Position numbers and translations under genes: made by a program. 51,216 nucleotides of DNA from a virus: the IMG/VR virus record IMGVR_UViG_3300046028_004317, positions 1 to 51,216 of that record; one strand, 5' to 3'. Numbering within the stretch: position 1 is the first letter of the stretch; the number at the start of each line of letters is the position of its first letter. Shown here in pieces: positions 19,569-28,233 of the stretch. The notes below the pieces were generated by a model. The model saw nothing but the letters and a program-made list of their open reading frames with translations, had not been told where the DNA came from and did not search any database.

Positions 19569-20222
19569 ATGCCACAAGCAATGACATTCAACTCGCTCAA
19601 AGATGACATCAGAAGTTATCTTGAGCGGGGGGCATCAGCAGCAACTGATCCACTCGTCTATGCACAGATCCCCCGACTGATCAACCTAGCAGAGAGAAGG
19701 ATCGCTAGGGACATCAAGGTTCAGGGGTTCTTGGTTGCTGTAACAAGTACCCTGCAGGTAAATATTCCAGTGATCCCAAAGCCTGATCGGTGGAGAGAGA
19801 CTGTCTCAATGAATATCGGTCTCGACCCACAGGGCAACCAGAGGTCGATGATCTACCCAAGGTCATATGAGTACTGCCGCTCTTACTGGCCCAACCAGAC
19901 TGACGTTGCACAGCCAGAGTTCTATGCGGACTACAACTACACCAACTGGCTGGTTGTTCCAACGCCTGATGTGGCGTATCCAATTGAGATCCTGTACTAC
20001 GAGCTGCCTGCCTTGCTGGATGATCAGGTACAGACCAACTGGCTAACCAACTTTGCACCTAATTTGTTGTTGTACGGCACTCTCTTGGAGGCCACCCCTT
20101 ATCTCAAGAACGATGAGCGGATACCGACATGGATGAGCTTCTATCAGATGGCTGCAACCGCACTTGATACAGAAGACACGAAGAAAATCTTTGATAGATC
20201 AGCAGCTCGGGACGAGGCTTAA
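19569..20222 (+). CDS. tail adaptor protein, 217 aa
   Basis: A helical N-terminus with DDIRSYLERG and IPRLINLAERRIARDI leads to a beta-rich middle (YPRSYEYCRSYWP; YNYTNWLVVPTPD) and a C-terminal helical tail. This matches the adaptor proteins that sit between portal and nozzle in podoviruses (SU10-type adaptor). ATAAGGAGCTGTA precedes the ATG. The distance from the portal gene is large for an adaptor, so the exact ring it forms is uncertain. Confidence 0.7.
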   Translation: MPQAMTFNSLKDDIRSYLERGASAATDPLVYAQIPRLINLAERRIARDIKVQGFLVAVTSTLQVNIPVIPKPDRWRETVSMNIGLDPQGNQRSMIYPRSYEYCRSYWPNQTDVAQPEFYADYNYTNWLVVPTPDVAYPIEILYYELPALLDDQVQTNWLTNFAPNLLLYGTLLEATPYLKNDERIPTWMSFYQMAATALDTEDTKKIFDRSAARDEA

Positions 20223-21352: not shown

Positions 21353-22999
21353 GTGGCAACAACGCCAGTAGTCATTAAGTCTCTTGCCGGGATCAAGCGG
21401 GACGGGACTAAATTTGAGGGCGAGTACTATGTGGACGGCCAGTGGGTTCGATTCCAGCGTGGGCTGCCCCGTAAGATGAGCGGGTATCGCAATGTAACTG
21501 ACTATATTGCCGAGATAAGTCGCGGGATAAAGACATTCACACAGAATGGATATACCTATTTGCATACTGGTAGCGCGTCATACGTCCAGCGCATCACGAT
21601 GGATGAGAATGCAAATGCTGGCGGATCTGAGGATCGTACCCCGGCATCGTTAAACTTCAATGATAACAACCTGTGGCAGTTCGATGTCCTGTATGACTCA
21701 ATTAGCTTGGTTCCAAGCAACAAGATCATCGCACAGGTTGCGCCAAACTATCCTGCCCTATCGAATACCACTGGAGCTCAAGTATTTTATGGTGATGTTC
21801 GGTCAGGCGACCGCCTTATAGACTTAGCTATCCCAGAGGGTGTGGATGCTTCTGGCGGGATATGCGTACTCCACCCATATCTAACAGTATTTGGCGCAGA
21901 TGGATCAATCGGGTGGTCAGCCCCCGGCAACCCAGCAGACATGTCTGGTGAGGGTTCTGGTAATGCCCGGATTGCAGCTCAGAAGCTAGTCAGGGGCTTG
22001 CCACTTCGAGGTGGCCCCGGCAATGCACCATCAGGTCTATTCTGGTCACTGGATGCGGTAGTTAGGGGGTCGTTTGTTGGCGGAACACAAACCTTCCAGT
22101 TCGACACGATCAGTGCTCAGAGCTCTATCCTGTCGGCTGCGTCCGTTATTGAATATGATGGCGTTTACTTCTGGGTGGGCGCTGATAGGTTCATCATGTT
22201 CAATGGCGTTGTTCGGGATCTGCCGAATAATCTTAGCTTGAACTGGTTCTTCAATGGATTGAACCGGGAAGCTGCTCAGCGGGTATTTGCCTTCAAGGTT
22301 ACGCGATACGGTGAGATATGGTGGTGCTACCCAAGGGGTGCGGCCACAGAGTGTACGCATGCTGTTATCTATAATGTGCGTGAGAACACTTGGTATGACA
22401 CAGCTCTACCAAATGGCGGCAGGTCAGCTGGGGAGTTCACCACTCAGTACGCCACCCCATTCCTGATGGGCGCTGCACAGAACATATCTAGGCTTGATCC
22501 CGGCATCAGAATAACAGAGCTCCCAAATAGCGACATCCGCACAACCGCACCAGCTGGTGATGTGCGGATTATCTATTTCGGTGATAATTTTAAGTGCTGG
22601 CAGCATGAGGTTGGCGTTAACGAGATTGATATCAGTCGCCTTAACGCCATCGAGTCATACTTTGAGACTTCAGACATGAGTGCCCTTGTAACTCAGGGCC
22701 ATGCCAAGTCGTTGAGATGTGACCTGCTGGAGCCTGACTTTGTCCAGTCTGGTGACATGAGCGTGTCTGTTACTGGCCGCTCTAATGCTAGATCTGCAGA
22801 GATTCCGTCAGAGATCAGGACGTTCTCAGATAATCCAGCTACGCCATATGATCAGGTTGTATACTTCAAGGACATTAGAAGAGAGATGAGGTTCAGGTTC
22901 AGCTCCAACACCGTAAATGGTGACTATCAGATGGGTCAGATAATTGCCCATATGGAAGAGGCTGATGGAACTGTATTGGGCGCTACAAATACAAATTGA
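21353..22999 (+). CDS. tail nozzle / hub protein, 548 aa
   Basis: The start is GTG directly after the previous stop. VIKSLAGIKRDGTKFEG, then GQWVRFQRGLPRKMSGYRN, is the signature of podoviral nozzle proteins related to P22 gp10. Several beta-propeller-like blades follow: ANPYLTVF-type strands, YDGVYFWVGADRFIMFNGVV and RYGEIWWCYPRG. A C-terminal YFKDIRREMRFRFSSN closes the fold. Six copies would form the narrow end of the tail below the adaptor. The stop overlaps a TTG start. Confidence 0.8.
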   Translation: MATTPVVIKSLAGIKRDGTKFEGEYYVDGQWVRFQRGLPRKMSGYRNVTDYIAEISRGIKTFTQNGYTYLHTGSASYVQRITMDENANAGGSEDRTPASLNFNDNNLWQFDVLYDSISLVPSNKIIAQVAPNYPALSNTTGAQVFYGDVRSGDRLIDLAIPEGVDASGGICVLHPYLTVFGADGSIGWSAPGNPADMSGEGSGNARIAAQKLVRGLPLRGGPGNAPSGLFWSLDAVVRGSFVGGTQTFQFDTISAQSSILSAASVIEYDGVYFWVGADRFIMFNGVVRDLPNNLSLNWFFNGLNREAAQRVFAFKVTRYGEIWWCYPRGAATECTHAVIYNVRENTWYDTALPNGGRSAGEFTTQYATPFLMGAAQNISRLDPGIRITELPNSDIRTTAPAGDVRIIYFGDNFKCWQHEVGVNEIDISRLNAIESYFETSDMSALVTQGHAKSLRCDLLEPDFVQSGDMSVSVTGRSNARSAEIPSEIRTFSDNPATPYDQVVYFKDIRREMRFRFSSNTVNGDYQMGQIIAHMEEADGTVLGATNTN

Positions 23000-23223
23000 T
23001 CACACTACCAGTTATAATAGGATTGCTCGATTGGACTGATCAGGTCGCACTCGATCTGAATGTTTATGGAGCGATTGAGAAGTTGGAAGATGAGAGTAAA
23101 TGGCAAGAATGGGCTGTTGTCTTTTGCACAATGCCGGGAATTAGCCAGAAAAACCCGCCCGATCCAAAGGGCTTTACCGATTGGCGAGAATGGGCCAGTC
23201 GATTCGCGCAAGTTATGACATAG
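22996..23223 (+). CDS. small tail-region protein, 75 aa
   Basis: TTG start overlapping the nozzle stop (TTGA). The protein has a hydrophobic N-terminus (LPVIIGLLDW) and a Trp-rich C-terminal half (KWQEWAVVFC; DWREWASRF). No family is recognised. It is the last tail-type gene before the acyl carrier protein and could belong to either group. Confidence 0.6.
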   Translation: MITLPVIIGLLDWTDQVALDLNVYGAIEKLEDESKWQEWAVVFCTMPGISQKNPPDPKGFTDWREWASRFAQVMT

Positions 23224-23233
23224 GGAGAAAGTT

Positions 23234-23518
23234 GTGGATAAGTTAGAGCTTTTCAACAAAATCGTGAAAGCTGCAAAACCCGCAAGTAGAGAAGATTCAC
23301 AGTCAAGTACGCTGGATGAAATGCTTGGCGATCTAGGAATAGATAGCCTTGATGCGATCATGCTTAGCATTTACTTTTCAGAGATATATGGTGTCTCAGA
23401 AGGGGTTTCAAAGACATTGATGCCAGCAACGCCTCGGCAGTTCTTTGAGATGTATGAGGCCAATGCGACAAGCGACCAGAAGACGATAGACGAGGCGATT
23501 GCGAGTATTAAGCTTTAG
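23234..23518 (+). CDS. acyl carrier protein, 94 aa
   Basis: The GTG start has AGGGAGAAAG 4-13 bases upstream. Residues 31-47 contain the ACP core LGDLGIDSLDAIMLS, with Ser38 of the D-S-L motif as the phosphopantetheine attachment site. The helix-II continuation IYFSEIYGV and a C-terminal helix follow the ACP fold. The C-terminus is extended by about 15 residues relative to AcpP. Acyl or malonyl groups would be carried as thioesters after the host (or an unseen) phosphopantetheinyl transferase activates it. The ketosynthase gene starts just after its stop. Lying in a phage tail operon is unusual. Confidence 0.85.
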   Translation: MDKLELFNKIVKAAKPASREDSQSSTLDEMLGDLGIDSLDAIMLSIYFSEIYGVSEGVSKTLMPATPRQFFEMYEANATSDQKTIDEAIASIKL

Positions 23519-23519
23519 T

Positions 23520-24644
23520 ATGAAAACATACTTAACTCAATACAAAACGGTCTGCACAACAGAGACAAGGTTAATAGAAAATATCACTTATCCACAGAGG
23601 ATGCATTGGATACCAGAGGTATTCTCAAGGGTTCAGTCCGGCCTGTCTTATGTTCCGCATGAGCTGGTGAACAAGGTAGTTGTAAAAGAGATTGTTGATT
23701 ATGTGAAGGACAACCCGGTGGACGGTAAGACCGCATTCTTATTGGCGGCAGGGTCACAGGGATGGGCTGGCGGCAAGTCAAAGAACAAAGAGGTTCAGAC
23801 TGAGCTTGATTATGTTTACAAGCTTGGAATGTTGACAATGACCAACGTATACGCTGGAAGACTGGCGGCTATGTTTGAGGCATATGATTATGTAACGACT
23901 GATGCCAGTGCATGTGCGTCAGGGATTAAGTGCATGATGGATGCGAAGAACCTCATGGATAACTTGGGGTTCGATAGAGTGATTATAGTTGGAGCAGAGG
24001 ATCAGTCTTCTAAGCAAACGCTAGAGTACTTCGGCCAGATGAAGGCATCGTTACTGTCAACATCTGAAGATCAGGGCGGAATTCCATCTGCATTTGATAG
24101 CAAGAACTGTGGGTTTATTCTGGGTCATGGGGCAGGGATTATGATATTTGAGACCGAGACCGCTGTTAATAAGAACGCTGTTCAGCCAAAGGCTGAGCTT
24201 CTTAGCGCATACATTTCGGCAGAGCAGAACCCCAACCCAATTGGACAGAGAGAGGATGGTCAGGGATACCAGAGGGCTATTACAGGGGCTCTTGAGTTCG
24301 CCAAGAAGAAGGCAAAAGACATTAAGCTGGTGAAGACGCATGGAACTGGAACGCTTACCAATAACAAGGCCGAGAGGAACGCCCTCACAACAGTCCTCGA
24401 TGATTTCATAGCAACATCATATAAGCAGCATATTGGGCATACATTGGCCGCGAGTAGTTTGGTTGAAACAGGATTAATTCTTGACGACATCAAGAAGGGG
24501 ATCATTCCAGCTATTAAAAATAGAACGGAAGATGACGATATTTTCTTGTCGAAAGAGTCTGGTGTCCCTGATGGCTTGCTATTAAGCTTAGCATCTGGAA
24601 TGGGCAATATTTATGCAGCATCGATATTCGATACGAGGGTCTAA
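23520..24644 (+). CDS. 3-oxoacyl-ACP synthase (ketosynthase) homologue, 374 aa
   Basis: It has the thiolase fold of KAS I/II enzymes, with the catalytic set intact: Cys132 in DASACASG, His274 in KTHGTGT and His307 in KQHIGHTLAAS, plus the Lys/Glu of NNKAERNAL. Such enzymes condense an acyl chain on the Cys with malonyl-ACP. The canonical C-terminal G-F-G-G-T-N loop, home of the gatekeeper Phe, is replaced by S-G-M-G-N in LASGMGNIYAASIF. I chose ATG 23520 because MKTYLTQYKT aligns with the usual KAS start; a TTG at 23499 is possible. It is near full length for the family (about 410). It probably partners the adjacent ACP; product unknown. Confidence 0.85.
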   Translation: MKTYLTQYKTVCTTETRLIENITYPQRMHWIPEVFSRVQSGLSYVPHELVNKVVVKEIVDYVKDNPVDGKTAFLLAAGSQGWAGGKSKNKEVQTELDYVYKLGMLTMTNVYAGRLAAMFEAYDYVTTDASACASGIKCMMDAKNLMDNLGFDRVIIVGAEDQSSKQTLEYFGQMKASLLSTSEDQGGIPSAFDSKNCGFILGHGAGIMIFETETAVNKNAVQPKAELLSAYISAEQNPNPIGQREDGQGYQRAITGALEFAKKKAKDIKLVKTHGTGTLTNNKAERNALTTVLDDFIATSYKQHIGHTLAASSLVETGLILDDIKKGIIPAIKNRTEDDDIFLSKESGVPDGLLLSLASGMGNIYAASIFDTRV

Positions 24645-24647
24645 ATT

Positions 24648-25103
24648 ATGTTAGTCGATAGTAAAAAGCAGATGCTGGTGGTGGAGGATCTAATGCGGAT
24701 TGCGGCAGAGATGGCAAATGAGGGGGTTCCAATGGAGTTGGTTCTGGCCGCATTTGTCAGAGAGGCCCAGATGCCAGACTCAAAGTTCTTTAGATATGGG
24801 AACACCATATTTATAGTTCACGGATCTGAAGAAGTCCCCGGCACAGGAATATTCCGTGCAATAAATGCAGACACCCCTCAGAACTATATTGAGAACTCCA
24901 GAAAGTGGATAGTTGACGCATACAATTCAGGATACTGGGCGCTCAGAACTCAGTTCAAGGATCAGTCGCTTATTAACCTATTCACGATACTTGCCAAGAA
25001 CCCCCCGCGCCCGAATATGGGATATCAAATCGGAGAGTCTGACGATGGGCAATTTATTGGAACCCTGATTCTAGGGCCAAGAACACCAGTACAGGGAGAA
25101 TAA
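24648..25103 (+). CDS. conserved phage protein, possibly GNAT-like acyltransferase or internal core protein, 151 aa
   Basis: A helical N-terminus (VEDLMRIAAEMANEG) is followed by a strand-strand-helix-strand-helix-strand-strand order: NTIFIVHG, GTGIFRAINAD, YIENSRKWIVDAYNSG, WALRTQF, LINLFTILAK, GYQIGES, QFIGTLILG. This matches the acceptor half of GNAT-fold acyltransferases, though I cannot see a clear R/QxxGxG/A acyl-CoA loop. Similar small proteins occur next to ejection proteins of podoviruses. It starts 3 bases after the ketosynthase stop, so it may transfer the acyl product, or it may simply be a core protein. Low certainty between these. Confidence 0.5.
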   Translation: MLVDSKKQMLVVEDLMRIAAEMANEGVPMELVLAAFVREAQMPDSKFFRYGNTIFIVHGSEEVPGTGIFRAINADTPQNYIENSRKWIVDAYNSGYWALRTQFKDQSLINLFTILAKNPPRPNMGYQIGESDDGQFIGTLILGPRTPVQGE

Positions 25104-25104
25104 A

Positions 25105-27237
25105 ATGGCAGTTATTGTTCATTTGGTAAAGGATGTTGTTAAGACGGTTGTTAACGTAGTTAAGGACGTAGTTAAGGGTGACTTTGGTCATATAGACAAC
25201 AGCCTAGCTCATGGGTTTGAGGATGCAGGCAAACACATCTATAAGGACGTGATAAAGCCGATTGCTGATGATCCAATCAGGTTTATTGCAACAGTAGCTC
25301 CGTACTTTATCCCCGGCGTAGGCCCAATTGCTGGCTCCGTAATGTCTGGCGTGATGAATGCTGGCGTAGGCTTGGCAGAGGGCGAGAAGTTTGGGGATGC
25401 ATTGAAGTCTGGTGTGATAGCTGGCGCTACTGGTTATGCTGGTGGCGCACTTGCTGGTAAAGCATTTGGCAGCACTGTAGGAAAGACAATGACTGCTTCA
25501 GAAAAGGCTCTTTGGGGGGATCTTGGGCAAGTTGCTAAACCCGGAGTCACTAATCCCCTCGCAAACTCTCTCTATGGAGATCTTGGCAGCACAATAAATC
25601 CAAAAACAGGAACCTTTATTAAGAACCTAGAGATTGGCGCTCCAGCAGCATCTGATCTTGGCGCAGCATTTGACACATCCACAGCAGCTTTTAAAAACGC
25701 TGGAAGGGATGTTGGCGCAGAAGTTGGTAGGAATAGCAGAACCGCATCATTGTCAGCAGACCCATCTCTGTCACTTCCTTCGGTTGCGACTATTGAATCT
25801 GTCCCAGTAACGAATGTTGCAAGATCAGCCAACACAGCTGCTGCAGAGGGGGCTGCTGCAGAGGGGGCTGCGAATCCGCCGATGACAGTAAAAGAAATGA
25901 TGAGCATGACGCAAGAAGTCCCAGCTTCAATTGTAGAGAGAAGCTATGGGGCAGATGGGGCGGCTGCTATAGGAGATATATCAAGCGCCACAACAAAGGG
26001 TGCATCTGGAGAGGCAGGGGCGACATCCGGCAATATGCTATGGGATGGCGCCAAGTGGGTTATGGATAATCCAATCAAGTCTGGTCTTGGAATTCTAGCT
26101 TTAGACAAGCTGGGTGCATTTGGCGAAACTGGTGGAGCACCATCTGGAGCGCCATCTGGAGCACCAGACCTTTCCAGATATAACGCAACATTTGATCAGC
26201 CGTTAGATCAGTACGCCATGAGCCAGTCACGCAACCAGTATGGTGACGACCTTAACAAATACGCTGAGTCAGGCGGTGGAGAGTTTAAGTTCTTGAGCGA
26301 TCCTATGTATACGCCCGTTCCTGCAGCTGCAAGGGGTGGGTACGTTAGGATGGCTGATGGTGGCCCTGTAAATCAAGATCCATACAACAATGATCCTTAT
26401 GCCGCCCAACCAATGCCACAGCTACAAGGCCAAGGATTGCAGGCTATGCAAGGATATGCGGACGGTGGAAGTGTTAACCCTACAGATCGTGAGCGCATGA
26501 TGATGCAAGGTGCTGGAGCGGGTCTGCGAGGTTATGCAGACGGTGGATCTGTTGTTGAATATGCAGATCCTAACGTTCAGCAGATGCCAGTTGCCCAAGG
26601 TTACCAAGGATCAATGCCTTGGGGATCTTCTGGAGCGCTTCCTCAAGGTGGCCCGATGTCTGAGGCTGATCGTCAACAGATGCTGCAGCAGCTCGCACCC
26701 CTTACCGCATTGTCGATGAAGGGCGCTCCTCCAAGGCCCGGAACTCCGCAACAAGGTCAACAAGGTCAGCCAGTACGGCCCGGAACCCCGCAACAAGGTC
26801 AGCCGGGAACATTGAGTCAGATGGTAGCCCCAAGCAAGCAGAATCCTAACTACAAGTACTATGGTTATGGAACTGTTCCCCAGTCAGTTGCTCCCTCACA
26901 AGCGGCAGGAACTCTTGGTGGGGCGATGACCCAACAGGAACGTATCCGCCAACAGCAGCGGCTACATCAACAGATGCTGATGCAGAGACAGCAAGGTCGT
27001 TATGCAGGTGGCGGTAAGATTGCCGATGGCAGATCTGATGATGTTCCCGCAATGCTGTCCAATGGCGAGTATGTGATGGACGCTGAGTCTGTTGGATTGC
27101 TTGGGAATGGCTCGAGTGATGCTGGCGCTAAGAAGCTGGATGCGATGCGGGCAGCAATCAGAAAGCAAAAGGGTAAGGCTCTAGCTAAAGGGAAGATATC
27201 CCCTAACGCAAAAGCACCATCTAAATATCTAAAATAG
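25105..27237 (+). CDS. ejection/internal virion protein with GG-x motifs, 710 aa
   Basis: Residues 1-25 form a Val/Lys amphipathic helix. Residues 60-130 are glycine-rich and hydrophobic (FIPGVGPIAGSVMSGVMNAG; GATGYAGGALAGKAFG), like membrane-active ejection proteins. After an Ala/Ser-rich middle, motifs recur: RGGYVRMADGGPV, YADGGSV twice, and YAGGGKIADG. A Gln/Gly/Pro linker (PGTPQQGQ repeats) precedes DDVPAMLSNGEYVMDAESV, a motif also common at the ends of tape-measure proteins. It probably travels in the head and enters the envelope during DNA ejection. Confidence 0.65.
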   Translation: MAVIVHLVKDVVKTVVNVVKDVVKGDFGHIDNSLAHGFEDAGKHIYKDVIKPIADDPIRFIATVAPYFIPGVGPIAGSVMSGVMNAGVGLAEGEKFGDALKSGVIAGATGYAGGALAGKAFGSTVGKTMTASEKALWGDLGQVAKPGVTNPLANSLYGDLGSTINPKTGTFIKNLEIGAPAASDLGAAFDTSTAAFKNAGRDVGAEVGRNSRTASLSADPSLSLPSVATIESVPVTNVARSANTAAAEGAAAEGAANPPMTVKEMMSMTQEVPASIVERSYGADGAAAIGDISSATTKGASGEAGATSGNMLWDGAKWVMDNPIKSGLGILALDKLGAFGETGGAPSGAPSGAPDLSRYNATFDQPLDQYAMSQSRNQYGDDLNKYAESGGGEFKFLSDPMYTPVPAAARGGYVRMADGGPVNQDPYNNDPYAAQPMPQLQGQGLQAMQGYADGGSVNPTDRERMMMQGAGAGLRGYADGGSVVEYADPNVQQMPVAQGYQGSMPWGSSGALPQGGPMSEADRQQMLQQLAPLTALSMKGAPPRPGTPQQGQQGQPVRPGTPQQGQPGTLSQMVAPSKQNPNYKYYGYGTVPQSVAPSQAAGTLGGAMTQQERIRQQQRLHQQMLMQRQQGRYAGGGKIADGRSDDVPAMLSNGEYVMDAESVGLLGNGSSDAGAKKLDAMRAAIRKQKGKALAKGKISPNAKAPSKYLK

Positions 27238-27246
27238 GGATCAGAT

Positions 27247-28233
27247 ATGTCAATCTCAGACTTTCTATTTAATGGTGCTCCTCCAGCGTCTATCAAGACG
27301 TATGGAGTGGCGGCAACTACTCAGCCTGCGTGGTACTCAGATTACACGCAGGGCCTGATTGAAAAGGCTAATTCGATTGCATCATCGCCTTATCAACCCT
27401 ACGGATTGAATAGGGTTGCCGGGTTCGCTCCAGAGCAGCAGAAGGCGTTTGCTGGAGTTGATGCTGCTGCGGACTCTTGGAAGCCAGCGTTTAATCAGGC
27501 AGCTCAAGCTATAAATGCTGCCGGGAGCTCCACTGGCCTTTCTGCGGCTCAGCCATACTTCAATCAAGCCTCACGGACAATACCTAGCGGGGTTTCAGAC
27601 TACCTGAATCCGTATACTGAGAATGTAGTTAATAGGCTTGGGGATCTGGCTAAGAGGCAAGTATCTGAGAACCTTATTCCAACCGTTCAGGGGCAGTTCA
27701 CAGCTGGCGGCACATTTGGCGGAAGCAGGTCTGGTAAGGCATTGGCTCAAGGATTGAGAGATATCCAAGAGTCAACGATGGCCCAGCAATCTGCAGCACT
27801 TGAGCGTGGGTATACTCAGGCTGGCGCTCAGTTCACTTCAGATCAGAATAGATTGGCCCAACTGGGTCAGGCTTCTGGAGCTCTGCAGACATCAGACTTG
27901 AACAGATATCTTGATATCGCTCGTCAGCAAGAGACTCTTGGTGGATTGCAGCAGCAACTTGGGCTTACTGGATTGGCCGCGCAGGAAGCGGTTGGCGGTC
28001 AACAGCAGATGCAAAACCAAGCCAATCTTGATTGGGCATACAAAGACTTCTTGGCTCAGCGCGATAGGCCGCAGGATATGGTTTCATTCTTGAACCAGAC
28101 CCTTCGTGGGCTTGAGATACCTAGTCGGACAGCTACAGAGAATGTTGCTCCTGCACAGGTCTATCAGCCATCAGGTCTTGCATCTCTGGCAAATGCTGCG
28201 GTAACTGCTACAGCTCTTAGTAAAATTAAATAA
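27247..28233 (+). CDS. helical ejection/internal virion protein, 328 aa
   Basis: The sequence is Gln/Ala/Leu/Ser-rich and mostly helical. YLNPYTENVVNRLGDLAKRQ and GGTFGGSRSGKALAQGL, followed by repeated AALERGYTQAG-type helices, match a family of podoviral internal proteins with the FGGSR loop. It is tightly placed between the 710-residue and 1087-residue virion proteins, 9 bases from its downstream neighbour, suggesting they form the ejected core together. No enzymatic motif. Confidence 0.65.
   Translation: MSISDFLFNGAPPASIKTYGVAATTQPAWYSDYTQGLIEKANSIASSPYQPYGLNRVAGFAPEQQKAFAGVDAAADSWKPAFNQAAQAINAAGSSTGLSAAQPYFNQASRTIPSGVSDYLNPYTENVVNRLGDLAKRQVSENLIPTVQGQFTAGGTFGGSRSGKALAQGLRDIQESTMAQQSAALERGYTQAGAQFTSDQNRLAQLGQASGALQTSDLNRYLDIARQQETLGGLQQQLGLTGLAAQEAVGGQQQMQNQANLDWAYKDFLAQRDRPQDMVSFLNQTLRGLEIPSRTATENVAPAQVYQPSGLASLANAAVTATALSKIK

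What the first reader, a model, noticed from the sequence alone, without database searches (positions are those of the whole stretch)
23234..24644. Acyl carrier protein plus ketosynthase encoded inside the phage tail operon
Seen: an ACP with the D-S38-L phosphopantetheine site, then a KAS-type enzyme with Cys132, His274 and His307, two bases apart and coupled to tail genes on the same strand. Known: such pairs extend acyl chains in fatty acid and polyketide synthesis. Inferred: the phage makes or elongates an acyl group late in infection, perhaps to acylate a virion protein or glycan or to change the host envelope. A two-protein carbon-chain unit between nozzle and ejection proteins is not a standard phage module.
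Basis: partly seen in the sequence, partly recalled or inferred. Interest (0 to 1): 0.9.

Follow-up and report, generated by a model that had tools for sequence, protein, structure and literature searches.

The report
Phage-specific acyl carrier and ketosynthase pair
A group of phages known mainly from environmental sequence carries its own fatty-acid-style chain-building enzyme and carrier protein, usually followed by a transferase-like protein among the tail genes, which suggests that these phages make and perhaps attach an acyl group of their own.

Summary
An ACP (23234-23518, Ser38) and a FabF-like ketosynthase (23520-24644; Cys132, His274, Lys302, His307) lie in the tail operon. It is no chimera: 80 viral contigs with 51-100% KS identity were fetched, and ACP lies beside KS in 81 of 81 loci counted. 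A sample found through the next gene keeps the catalytic residues and ACP serine wherever covered. The viral KSs form one clade, far from the 11 cellular KSs compared, under purifying selection, with a rebuilt gate (FabF Phe400 to Met, 35 of 35) and no FabF docking patch. New: the next gene (24648-25103) has a GNAT acyltransferase-type fold and follows KS in 65 of 67 tail-block loci, the other two being cut off. Caulobacter phage RW, a cultured relative, lacks exactly these three genes between collinear neighbours. In three records with the pair at an early locus, the GNAT-fold gene is still in the tail block. The unit is probably ACP-KS-GNAT, leaning on host enzymes. Product and acceptor are unknown; I propose acyl transfer to an amine, perhaps on the adjacent ejection-type protein.

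The parts
23234..23518 (+). acyl carrier protein, 94 aa, phosphopantetheine site D37-S38-L39-D40
   Evidence: D37, S38, D40 invariant in 39 rows; profile hits PDB ACPs at best E 9.4e-6
23520..24644 (+). FabF-like ketosynthase, 374 aa, Cys132 His274 Lys302 His307 Glu316, gate Met361
   Evidence: Pfam ketoacyl-synt N and C domains; AF2 model pLDDT 91.6, Z 43.0 to FabF 2rjt_A (2.8 A over 354 residues)
24648..25103 (+). g151, GNAT-fold protein of 151 aa, proposed acyl-transferring partner
   Evidence: AF2 pLDDT 90.3; Z 11.5 to GNAT-type entries (2.5-2.8 A over 126-127 residues); follows KS in 65 of 67 tail-block loci; absent with ACP and KS from Caulobacter phage RW
25105..27237 (+). g710, ejection-type protein (by position) with N-terminal amphipathic valine-rich helix; candidate acceptor (inference)
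   Evidence: N-terminal repeat in nearly all of 37 distinct homologues listed, judged by eye; absent from RW GP066c, which shares the C-terminal 68 residues at 63%
22996..23223 (+). 75-aa gene, left border of the insertion (homologue of RW GP067c)
   Evidence: 46% over 65 residues
21353..22999 (+). nozzle/stabilisation-type virion protein, context
   Evidence: phrog_3287 (virion structural protein) at 5.2e-30; 52% to Caulobacter phage RW, 39% to MW202545 where it is annotated 'phage stabilization protein'
27247..28233 (+). 328-aa gene, right-hand context, collinear in RW
   Evidence: 39% over 308 residues to RW GP065c
19569..20222 (+). SU10-type adaptor protein, context
   Evidence: PF24175 at 1.2e-22

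Best explanation
ACP, KS and g151 are one phage-specific module that makes and hands on a special acyl group. Step 1 (inferred): the host's phosphopantetheinyl transferase loads Ser38 of the phage ACP, and host enzymes supply malonyl and primer units. Step 2 (active-site residues shown, activity inferred): the phage KS takes an acyl chain on Cys132 and condenses it with a malonyl unit on its own ACP, using His274, His307 and Lys302; its altered gate and docking surface suggest a substrate range and ACP partner different from host FabF. Step 3 (inferred): host reductase and dehydratase finish the chain; two relatives bring a FabZ-like gene of their own. Step 4 (fold shown, activity inferred): the GNAT-fold g151 takes the acyl group from ACP and puts it on an amine. 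The best candidate acceptor is the ejection-type protein encoded next, whose N-terminal amphipathic helix accompanies the trio; a small amine or lipid precursor is the alternative acceptor.
For: ACP beside KS in 81 of 81 loci. In a sample found through g151 and not through KS (5 of its 80 contigs were also): KS Cys in 71 of 71 copies that cover it, His/Lys/His/Glu in 72 of 72, ACP Ser in 71 of 71. In the sample found through KS, g151 follows in 65 of 67 tail-block loci, the other two ending with KS. dN/dS 0.02-0.06 for KS (3 pairs) and 0.04-0.08 for ACP (2 pairs) where it could be computed. Gate and docking changes fixed in 35 of 35 viral KSs; ACP helix II position 41 is not acidic in 39 of 39. 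The three genes are absent together from Caulobacter phage RW, where the flanking genes are collinear and the two at the site overlap by 4 bases. In G030 and G034 the pair lies elsewhere in the same record while g151 stays in the tail block, and G002 likewise has both apart. L106 keeps ACP and g151 without KS in its 34-kb record. One and the same phage record, MW202545.1, of 50,697 holds relatives of all three. g151 has a GNAT fold; acyl-ACP-using members of that superfamily exist (LuxI family, passage in PMC4234381). A FabZ gene sits directly behind KS in L029, and by eye in L028.
Against: No activity is shown. g151 lacks the usual GNAT motif (Q/R)xxGx(G/A) (motif recalled), so it may be a non-enzymatic virion protein; the same residues are kept in copies without KS beside them. 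Seven of 80 g151 loci have neither KS nor ACP beside them; two of these records hold the pair elsewhere, and in five fragments of at most 16.6 kb no KS was found. Of nine early-locus records g151 was found in one; the other eight are fragments without the tail block or too short to tell. The three-gene absence rests on one phage group. The early-locus copies argue against a function tied only to virion assembly. In L044 and others the N-terminal helix has no lysine, so only an N-terminal amine would serve there.
Confidence: 0.4

Rival explanations
1. Metabolic reading: ACP and KS are an auxiliary lipid-metabolism unit that elongates or re-shapes fatty acids for host membrane lipids or envelope during infection; g151 is an unrelated virion protein and the tail-operon position only gives strong expression.
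For: Catalytic residues intact; FabZ with the pair in L029 and, by eye, L028; the pair also sits in a replication-type region; fab genes are listed as viral AMGs in surveys (passages read).
Against: The viral KS is a distant clade, not a recent host copy. The docking surface of KS and helix II of ACP changed, so free exchange with host fatty acid synthesis looks impaired. g151 follows KS in 65 of 67 tail-block loci and is missing from RW together with the pair.
Confidence: 0.32
2. Decoy reading: phage ACP and KS sequester host phosphopantetheinyl transferase, malonyl-CoA or acyl chains and so hold back host fatty acid synthesis.
For: No ACPS-type PPTase (PF01648) or PF13561-type reductase was found in 23 viral records (many are partial), so the pair seems to draw on host supplies.
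Against: A decoy would not need the whole Cys-His-Lys-His-Glu set under strong constraint in every copy that covers the residue, nor an accompanying FabZ.
Confidence: 0.1
3. Structural reading: ACP and KS are virion building blocks that no longer catalyse.
For: Position downstream of the nozzle-type gene and before g151 in the window and in most loci: nozzle-type family near KS in 61 of 81 loci, g151 behind KS in 65 of 82.
Against: Invariant catalytic residues; the pair can sit in a replication-type region in related phages.
Confidence: 0.07
4. Artefact: bacterial DNA joined to phage DNA in assembly.
For: acpP beside fabF is a bacterial arrangement too, as in E. coli.
Against: Same locus in independent contigs and in MW202545.1; separate viral clade.
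Confidence: 0.01

Closest known systems
KAS II / FabF elongating ketosynthase with AcpP (type II fatty acid synthesis)
   Same: Thiolase fold (Z 43.0 to 2rjt_A), Cys-His-His with Lys and Glu, ACP gene next to it as acpP-fabF in E. coli.
   Different: 374 aa against 413 for the E. coli gene; FabF residues 33-55 and 65-78 missing, gate Phe400 to Met, Gly402 to Asn, basic docking patch absent; no fabD, fabG or fabH seen beside it; 115.7 bits against a fabF equivalog cut-off of 493.75.
Type II polyketide minimal KS-ACP (AntDE:AntF)
   Same: KS plus free-standing ACP; Z 42.7 to 6smp_H.
   Different: One KS-like protein per locus, no second KS-like subunit beside it.
Viral ketosynthase-like proteins in BFVD
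   Same: A0A6J7X0R1, named FabB, uncultured Caudovirales phage, 366 aa, 47% over 372 columns: evidently the same family, named but not described in what I saw.
   Different: A0A8S5QDX3 (Siphoviridae sp. ctbvd11, 15%) and the type III polyketide synthases of Streptomyces phage ZL12 and Yasminevirus (9-10%) are distant or of another class.
Stand-alone phage acyl carrier proteins (Alteromonas phage R22Y, Vibrio phage R16F, Erythrobacter phage R6L; passages read in PMC11705849, PMC10152775, PMC5463345)
   Same: Phage-encoded ACP of unknown role.
   Different: In the passages read an ACP is reported without a ketosynthase; here the ACP is tied to a viral KS and a GNAT-fold gene. Sequences not compared.
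acpP-fabF-fabG called in Rhodobacteraceae prophages (PMC8224337, passages read)
   Same: ACP and FabF reported in prophages.
   Different: That set has the bacterial fabG-acpP-fabF order; I did not fetch its sequences, so kinship was not tested.
GNAT enzymes and N-acyl synthases that use acyl-ACP (LuxI family, PMC4234381 passage; N-acyl amino acid synthases, PMC8762209 passage)
   Same: GNAT superfamily (LuxI) or acyl-ACP as donor, as proposed for g151.
   Different: No sequence kinship found; the g151 fold matches many GNATs about equally.

Membership tests
Elongating beta-ketoacyl-ACP synthase (FabB/FabF) | Thiolase-type KS fold | tested here: met
   both Pfam domains over cut-off; Z 43.0, 2.8 A, 354 residues
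Elongating beta-ketoacyl-ACP synthase (FabB/FabF) | Cys163, His303, Lys335, His340, Glu349 | tested here: met
   all five identical in 35 of 35 viral KSs
Elongating beta-ketoacyl-ACP synthase (FabB/FabF) | GFGG gate loop with Phe400 | tested here: not met
   GMGN in 35 of 35; Phe in 11 of 11 cellular KSs compared; loop described in PMC7138838 (passages)
Elongating beta-ketoacyl-ACP synthase (FabB/FabF) | Basic ACP-docking patch Lys65, Arg68, Lys69 | tested here: not met
   alignment gap in 35 of 35; roles from PMC7138838 passages
Elongating beta-ketoacyl-ACP synthase (FabB/FabF) | Condensing activity | not testable with these tools
   needs purified proteins
Acyl carrier protein | Asp-Ser-Leu phosphopantetheine site | tested here: met
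   D37 S38 D40 invariant in 39 rows; D-S-(L/M/I)-D in 71 of 71
Acyl carrier protein | Pfam PP-binding or ACP profile match of the window protein itself | tested here: inconclusive
   no match over cut-off; profile with relatives finds PDB ACPs; relative in L106 passes Pfam
Acyl carrier protein | Four-helix fold and phosphopantetheinylation | not tested
GNAT superfamily (g151) | GNAT fold | tested here: met
   Z up to 11.5; 42 of the 50 rows shown name an acetyl- or acyltransferase in the title; Foldseek agrees but with modest TM-scores (best E 1.5e-4, TM to query 0.32-0.59)
GNAT superfamily (g151) | Motif (Q/R)xxGx(G/A) for CoA pyrophosphate | tested here: not met
   (R/K)-(A/G)-x-(N/T/S)-x-D-T pattern at the beta4-alpha3 junction of the model; motif itself recalled
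Type II polyketide synthase | KS paired with a chain length factor | tested here: not met
   one PF00109 match in the whole record; the KS cluster among KS neighbours holds 81 members in 81 loci
Auxiliary metabolic gene recently taken from a host | Groups with host homologues | tested here: not met
   viral clade 100/100 on a branch of 2.49 against 11 cellular KSs; one close match in the collection of 84,980 genomes, on a contig with phage-type neighbours

The most novel reading that the evidence does not exclude
ACP-KS-g151 is a viral protein-acylation system: the phage builds its own acyl-ACP and a GNAT-fold acyltransferase attaches the chain, perhaps at the N-terminal amine, to the amphipathic ejection-type protein encoded next, to help it enter the host envelope. 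The listed homologues of that protein have Ser, Ala, Gly or Pro at position 2 in 36 of 37 distinct cases, against Ser, Ala, Gly, Pro or Thr in 165 of 305 other genes in the same loci (not corrected for kinship, and wrong start calls dilute the background).
Probability: 0.2. Interest if true: 0.93.

Novelty: new variant of a known kind. Interest (0 to 1): 0.82.

Why it matters
Phage ACPs have been reported singly and without a tested function in the passages I read. Here a dedicated condensing enzyme, its carrier and a GNAT-fold partner travel together as a viral lineage far from the bacterial enzymes sampled. If active, this is carbon-chain chemistry of the phage's own, kept under strong selection, and it gives a concrete test of whether phages acylate virion proteins or remodel host envelopes. 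It also puts a possible function next to GNAT-fold genes of unknown role in phage tail blocks.

Tried and rejected
Chimera or contamination: rejected. Recent capture from a host: rejected by the tree and by the genome scan. Degenerate, dead KS: rejected by residue conservation and dN/dS. A full phage-encoded fatty acid pathway: of 24 records, 23 of them viral, no PF01648 PPTase and no PF13561 reductase in the viral ones, PF07977 FabZ in 1 viral record; many records are partial and other reductase models were not searched. T7 gp13 as the sequence relative of g151, suggested by its place in the gene order: not supported (hhalign). g151 as present only beside KS: not so. FabZ and the L106 ACP as seeds for wider viral searches returned only themselves. 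PDB sequence search for g151: nothing convincing. Plasmids: 380 records match KS at E <= 1e-5, all under 60% identity, the best of the five listed 31%. Paper searches for a phage KS-ACP pair showed no description of this pair; the library is open-access only and holds no preprints.

Biases. The KS motif used as scan pattern favours intact motifs, which is why the sample, found through g151, was used for the residue counts; 5 of its 80 contigs are also. The g151 profile was built from KS-adjacent copies, so 72 of 80 is not an unbiased rate; one search asks the question the other way round, from KS.

Rows dropped before counts: of the 99 loci then held I left out L001-L005, L008-L010, L013 and L014 (the window's own locus, or contigs held again as larger loci) and L093-L099 (cellular), leaving 82. 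L041 was missed by my gene picker and is not in the 81; its ACP and KS are intact and it is counted. The 81 include near-identical contigs, among them four whose KS is 100% identical to the window's; 34 KSs remained at a 90% identity filter with L016 set aside. In one search one of 72 KS copies is cut off before the Cys. The numbering printed was one residue off and was replaced. dN/dS could not be computed for saturated pairs.

Full report
What is in the window. ACP is 94 aa with D37-S38-L39-D40. KS is 374 aa from ATG 23520, one base behind the ACP stop, with Cys132, His274, Lys302, His307 and Glu316. KS matches both Pfam ketosynthase domains over cut-off, a PHROG family of unknown function (phrog_35856, 3.3e-39) and FabF-type enzymes in the PDB. 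The ACP is too divergent for a single-sequence match over cut-off, but a profile of 39 rows finds PDB acyl carrier proteins (best E 9.4e-6). The record is a virus record of 51,216 bases with terminase, portal, capsid, adaptor and virion structural genes.

It is a real viral family. In the genome collection (84,980 species) 8 of 121 stretches encode a relative; only one is close (48%, a Balneolaceae MAG contig with the same phage-type neighbours) and the others are at most 37% over part of the protein. Of 50,697 phage records one (MW202545.1, Manatee Spring) has a full-length relative, 47%, in the same place; 18 others have partial matches of 24-30%. The same record alone matches ACP (34%) and g151 (33%). 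ACP lies next to KS in 81 of 81 loci, in 66 of them overlapping by 4 bases if the first start codon is used.

Catalysis looks intact. In 35 viral KSs all five catalytic residues are invariant. Because one search was seeded with a KS motif, I checked a sample found through the neighbouring gene instead (5 of its 80 contigs were also): of 72 KS copies (62 distinct), His, Lys, His and Glu are present in 72, Cys in the 71 that reach it, and the ACP serine in 71 of 71 ACPs. dN/dS is 0.02-0.06 for KS in three computable pairs and 0.04-0.08 for ACP in two.

It is not ordinary FabF. The AF2 model (pLDDT 91.6) matches FabF at Z 43.0 (2.8 A over 354 residues). But the viral clade is separated from 11 cellular KSs by a branch of 2.49 with 100/100 support (the cellular set is small). 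Phe400 of the gate is Met in 35 of 35, Gly402 is Asn, Asn404 is Tyr or Phe; FabF residues 65-78, which hold the docking patch Lys65/Arg68/Lys69, are missing, and Arg127 aligns with Leu (roles of these FabF residues from passages of PMC7138838). On the carrier side helix II position 41, Glu in E. coli AcpP, is never acidic in 39 ACPs. I infer a private KS-ACP pair.

The third gene. The next gene, g151, gave a confident AF2 model (pLDDT 90.3) with GNAT topology. Foldseek and VIA-align put GNAT acetyltransferases on top (best Foldseek E 1.5e-4 with TM-scores of 0.32-0.59 to the query; Z 11.5). TofI, which I recall as an acyl-ACP-dependent LuxI-type synthase, is only at Foldseek ranks 37 and 41. 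The usual CoA motif is replaced by an R-x-x-N-x-D-T-like sequence, which fits either a donor other than CoA or a non-enzyme. Starting from KS, g151 follows in 65 of 67 tail-block loci, and the other two end with KS; in the 15 early loci none lies in the stretch fetched. Starting from g151, a profile found 372 viral stretches; among the best 80, 72 have KS and 71 ACP beside them. L106 has ACP and g151 but no KS in its 34-kb record; seven have neither nearby. Of these eight KS-less records, two (G030, 42.6 kb; G034, 25.9 kb) carry ACP-KS elsewhere, behind a helicase-type gene; no KS was found in the other six, five of which are at most 16.6 kb. Of nine early-locus records g151 was found in one (G002), which holds the tail block; G020 (30 kb) shows head genes but no tail-block match, and the rest are at most 17.7 kb. 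The residues conserved in g151 are the same in copies with and without KS beside them, so g151 does not need an adjacent KS.

The empty site. Caulobacter phage RW is a relative with a named laboratory host (terminase 50%, nozzle 52%, major capsid 81%). Its nozzle, 75-aa-like, g710-like and g328-like genes are collinear with the window, but the second and third overlap by 4 bases and nothing lies between them. Profile searches of the whole RW record for g151, KS and ACP at E <= 1 find nothing. So three genes are gained or lost together here; this is one comparison, with one phage group.

Possible acceptor. The large gene behind g151 begins, in nearly all of 37 distinct cases listed, with a valine-rich amphipathic repeat and then a hydrophobic stretch (judged by eye; L058 and L036 fit it less well). 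RW GP066c has a similar hydrophobic stretch (by eye) and the C-terminus but not the repeat. Membrane insertion during DNA ejection is my inference, and so is acylation.

Location has moved. On the KS tree the early-locus and tail-block labels need three changes, of which well-supported branches force two. The window, in the tail block, sits inside an otherwise mostly early-locus group, though the branch that joins it to L006 is weak (89/44). This tells against a role tied only to late expression.

Supplies. No PF01648 PPTase or PF13561 reductase was found in the 23 viral records searched, and FabZ (PF07977) in one; L028, not among those records, also has a FabZ-like gene directly behind KS by eye. 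The module probably uses host enzymes.

Literature. Paper searches showed viral fabF or acpP listed in AMG surveys and single phage ACPs, read as passages, but no account of this pair or trio in that open-access library. In BFVD one phage protein of the same family (47%) bears the automatic-looking name FabB.

Verdict. The best reading is an acyl-making and acyl-transferring unit (0.4), with a lipid-metabolism unit as the main rival (0.32).

Noticed in passing
L029:9130-9561 and L028:4168-4632: FabZ-like dehydratase gene directly behind KS in two early-locus contigs (PF07977 at 5.8e-30 for L029; L028 by eye).
   Followed up: partly
L106:4694-4984: ACP next to g151 with no KS in the 34-kb record; this ACP passes Pfam PP-binding.
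   Followed up: partly
L006, L007, L021, before ACP (160 aa): Gene with an HSH motif inserted before ACP in three early-locus contigs; Cupin_2 only at E 0.051, under cut-off.
   Followed up: no
L032:9094-9750: 218-aa gene between KS and the g151 homologue; by eye like a 2-oxoglutarate oxygenase or aspartyl hydroxylase, no Pfam match at 0.1.
   Followed up: no
L016:19992-20151 (MW202545.1): The deposited KS start appears too late; homology extends about 50 codons upstream to near the ACP stop.
   Followed up: partly
phages collection, hits H2-H19: Eighteen records labelled phage (Listeria, Enterococcus, Staphylococcus, Pseudomonas, faecal samples, one Salmonella), 17 without annotation, match KS at 24-30%; possibly bacterial DNA in the deposits.
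   Followed up: no
window 25105-27237, N-terminus, and homologues: Valine-rich amphipathic repeat at the start of the ejection-type protein in trio-bearing phages, absent from Caulobacter phage RW.
   Followed up: partly
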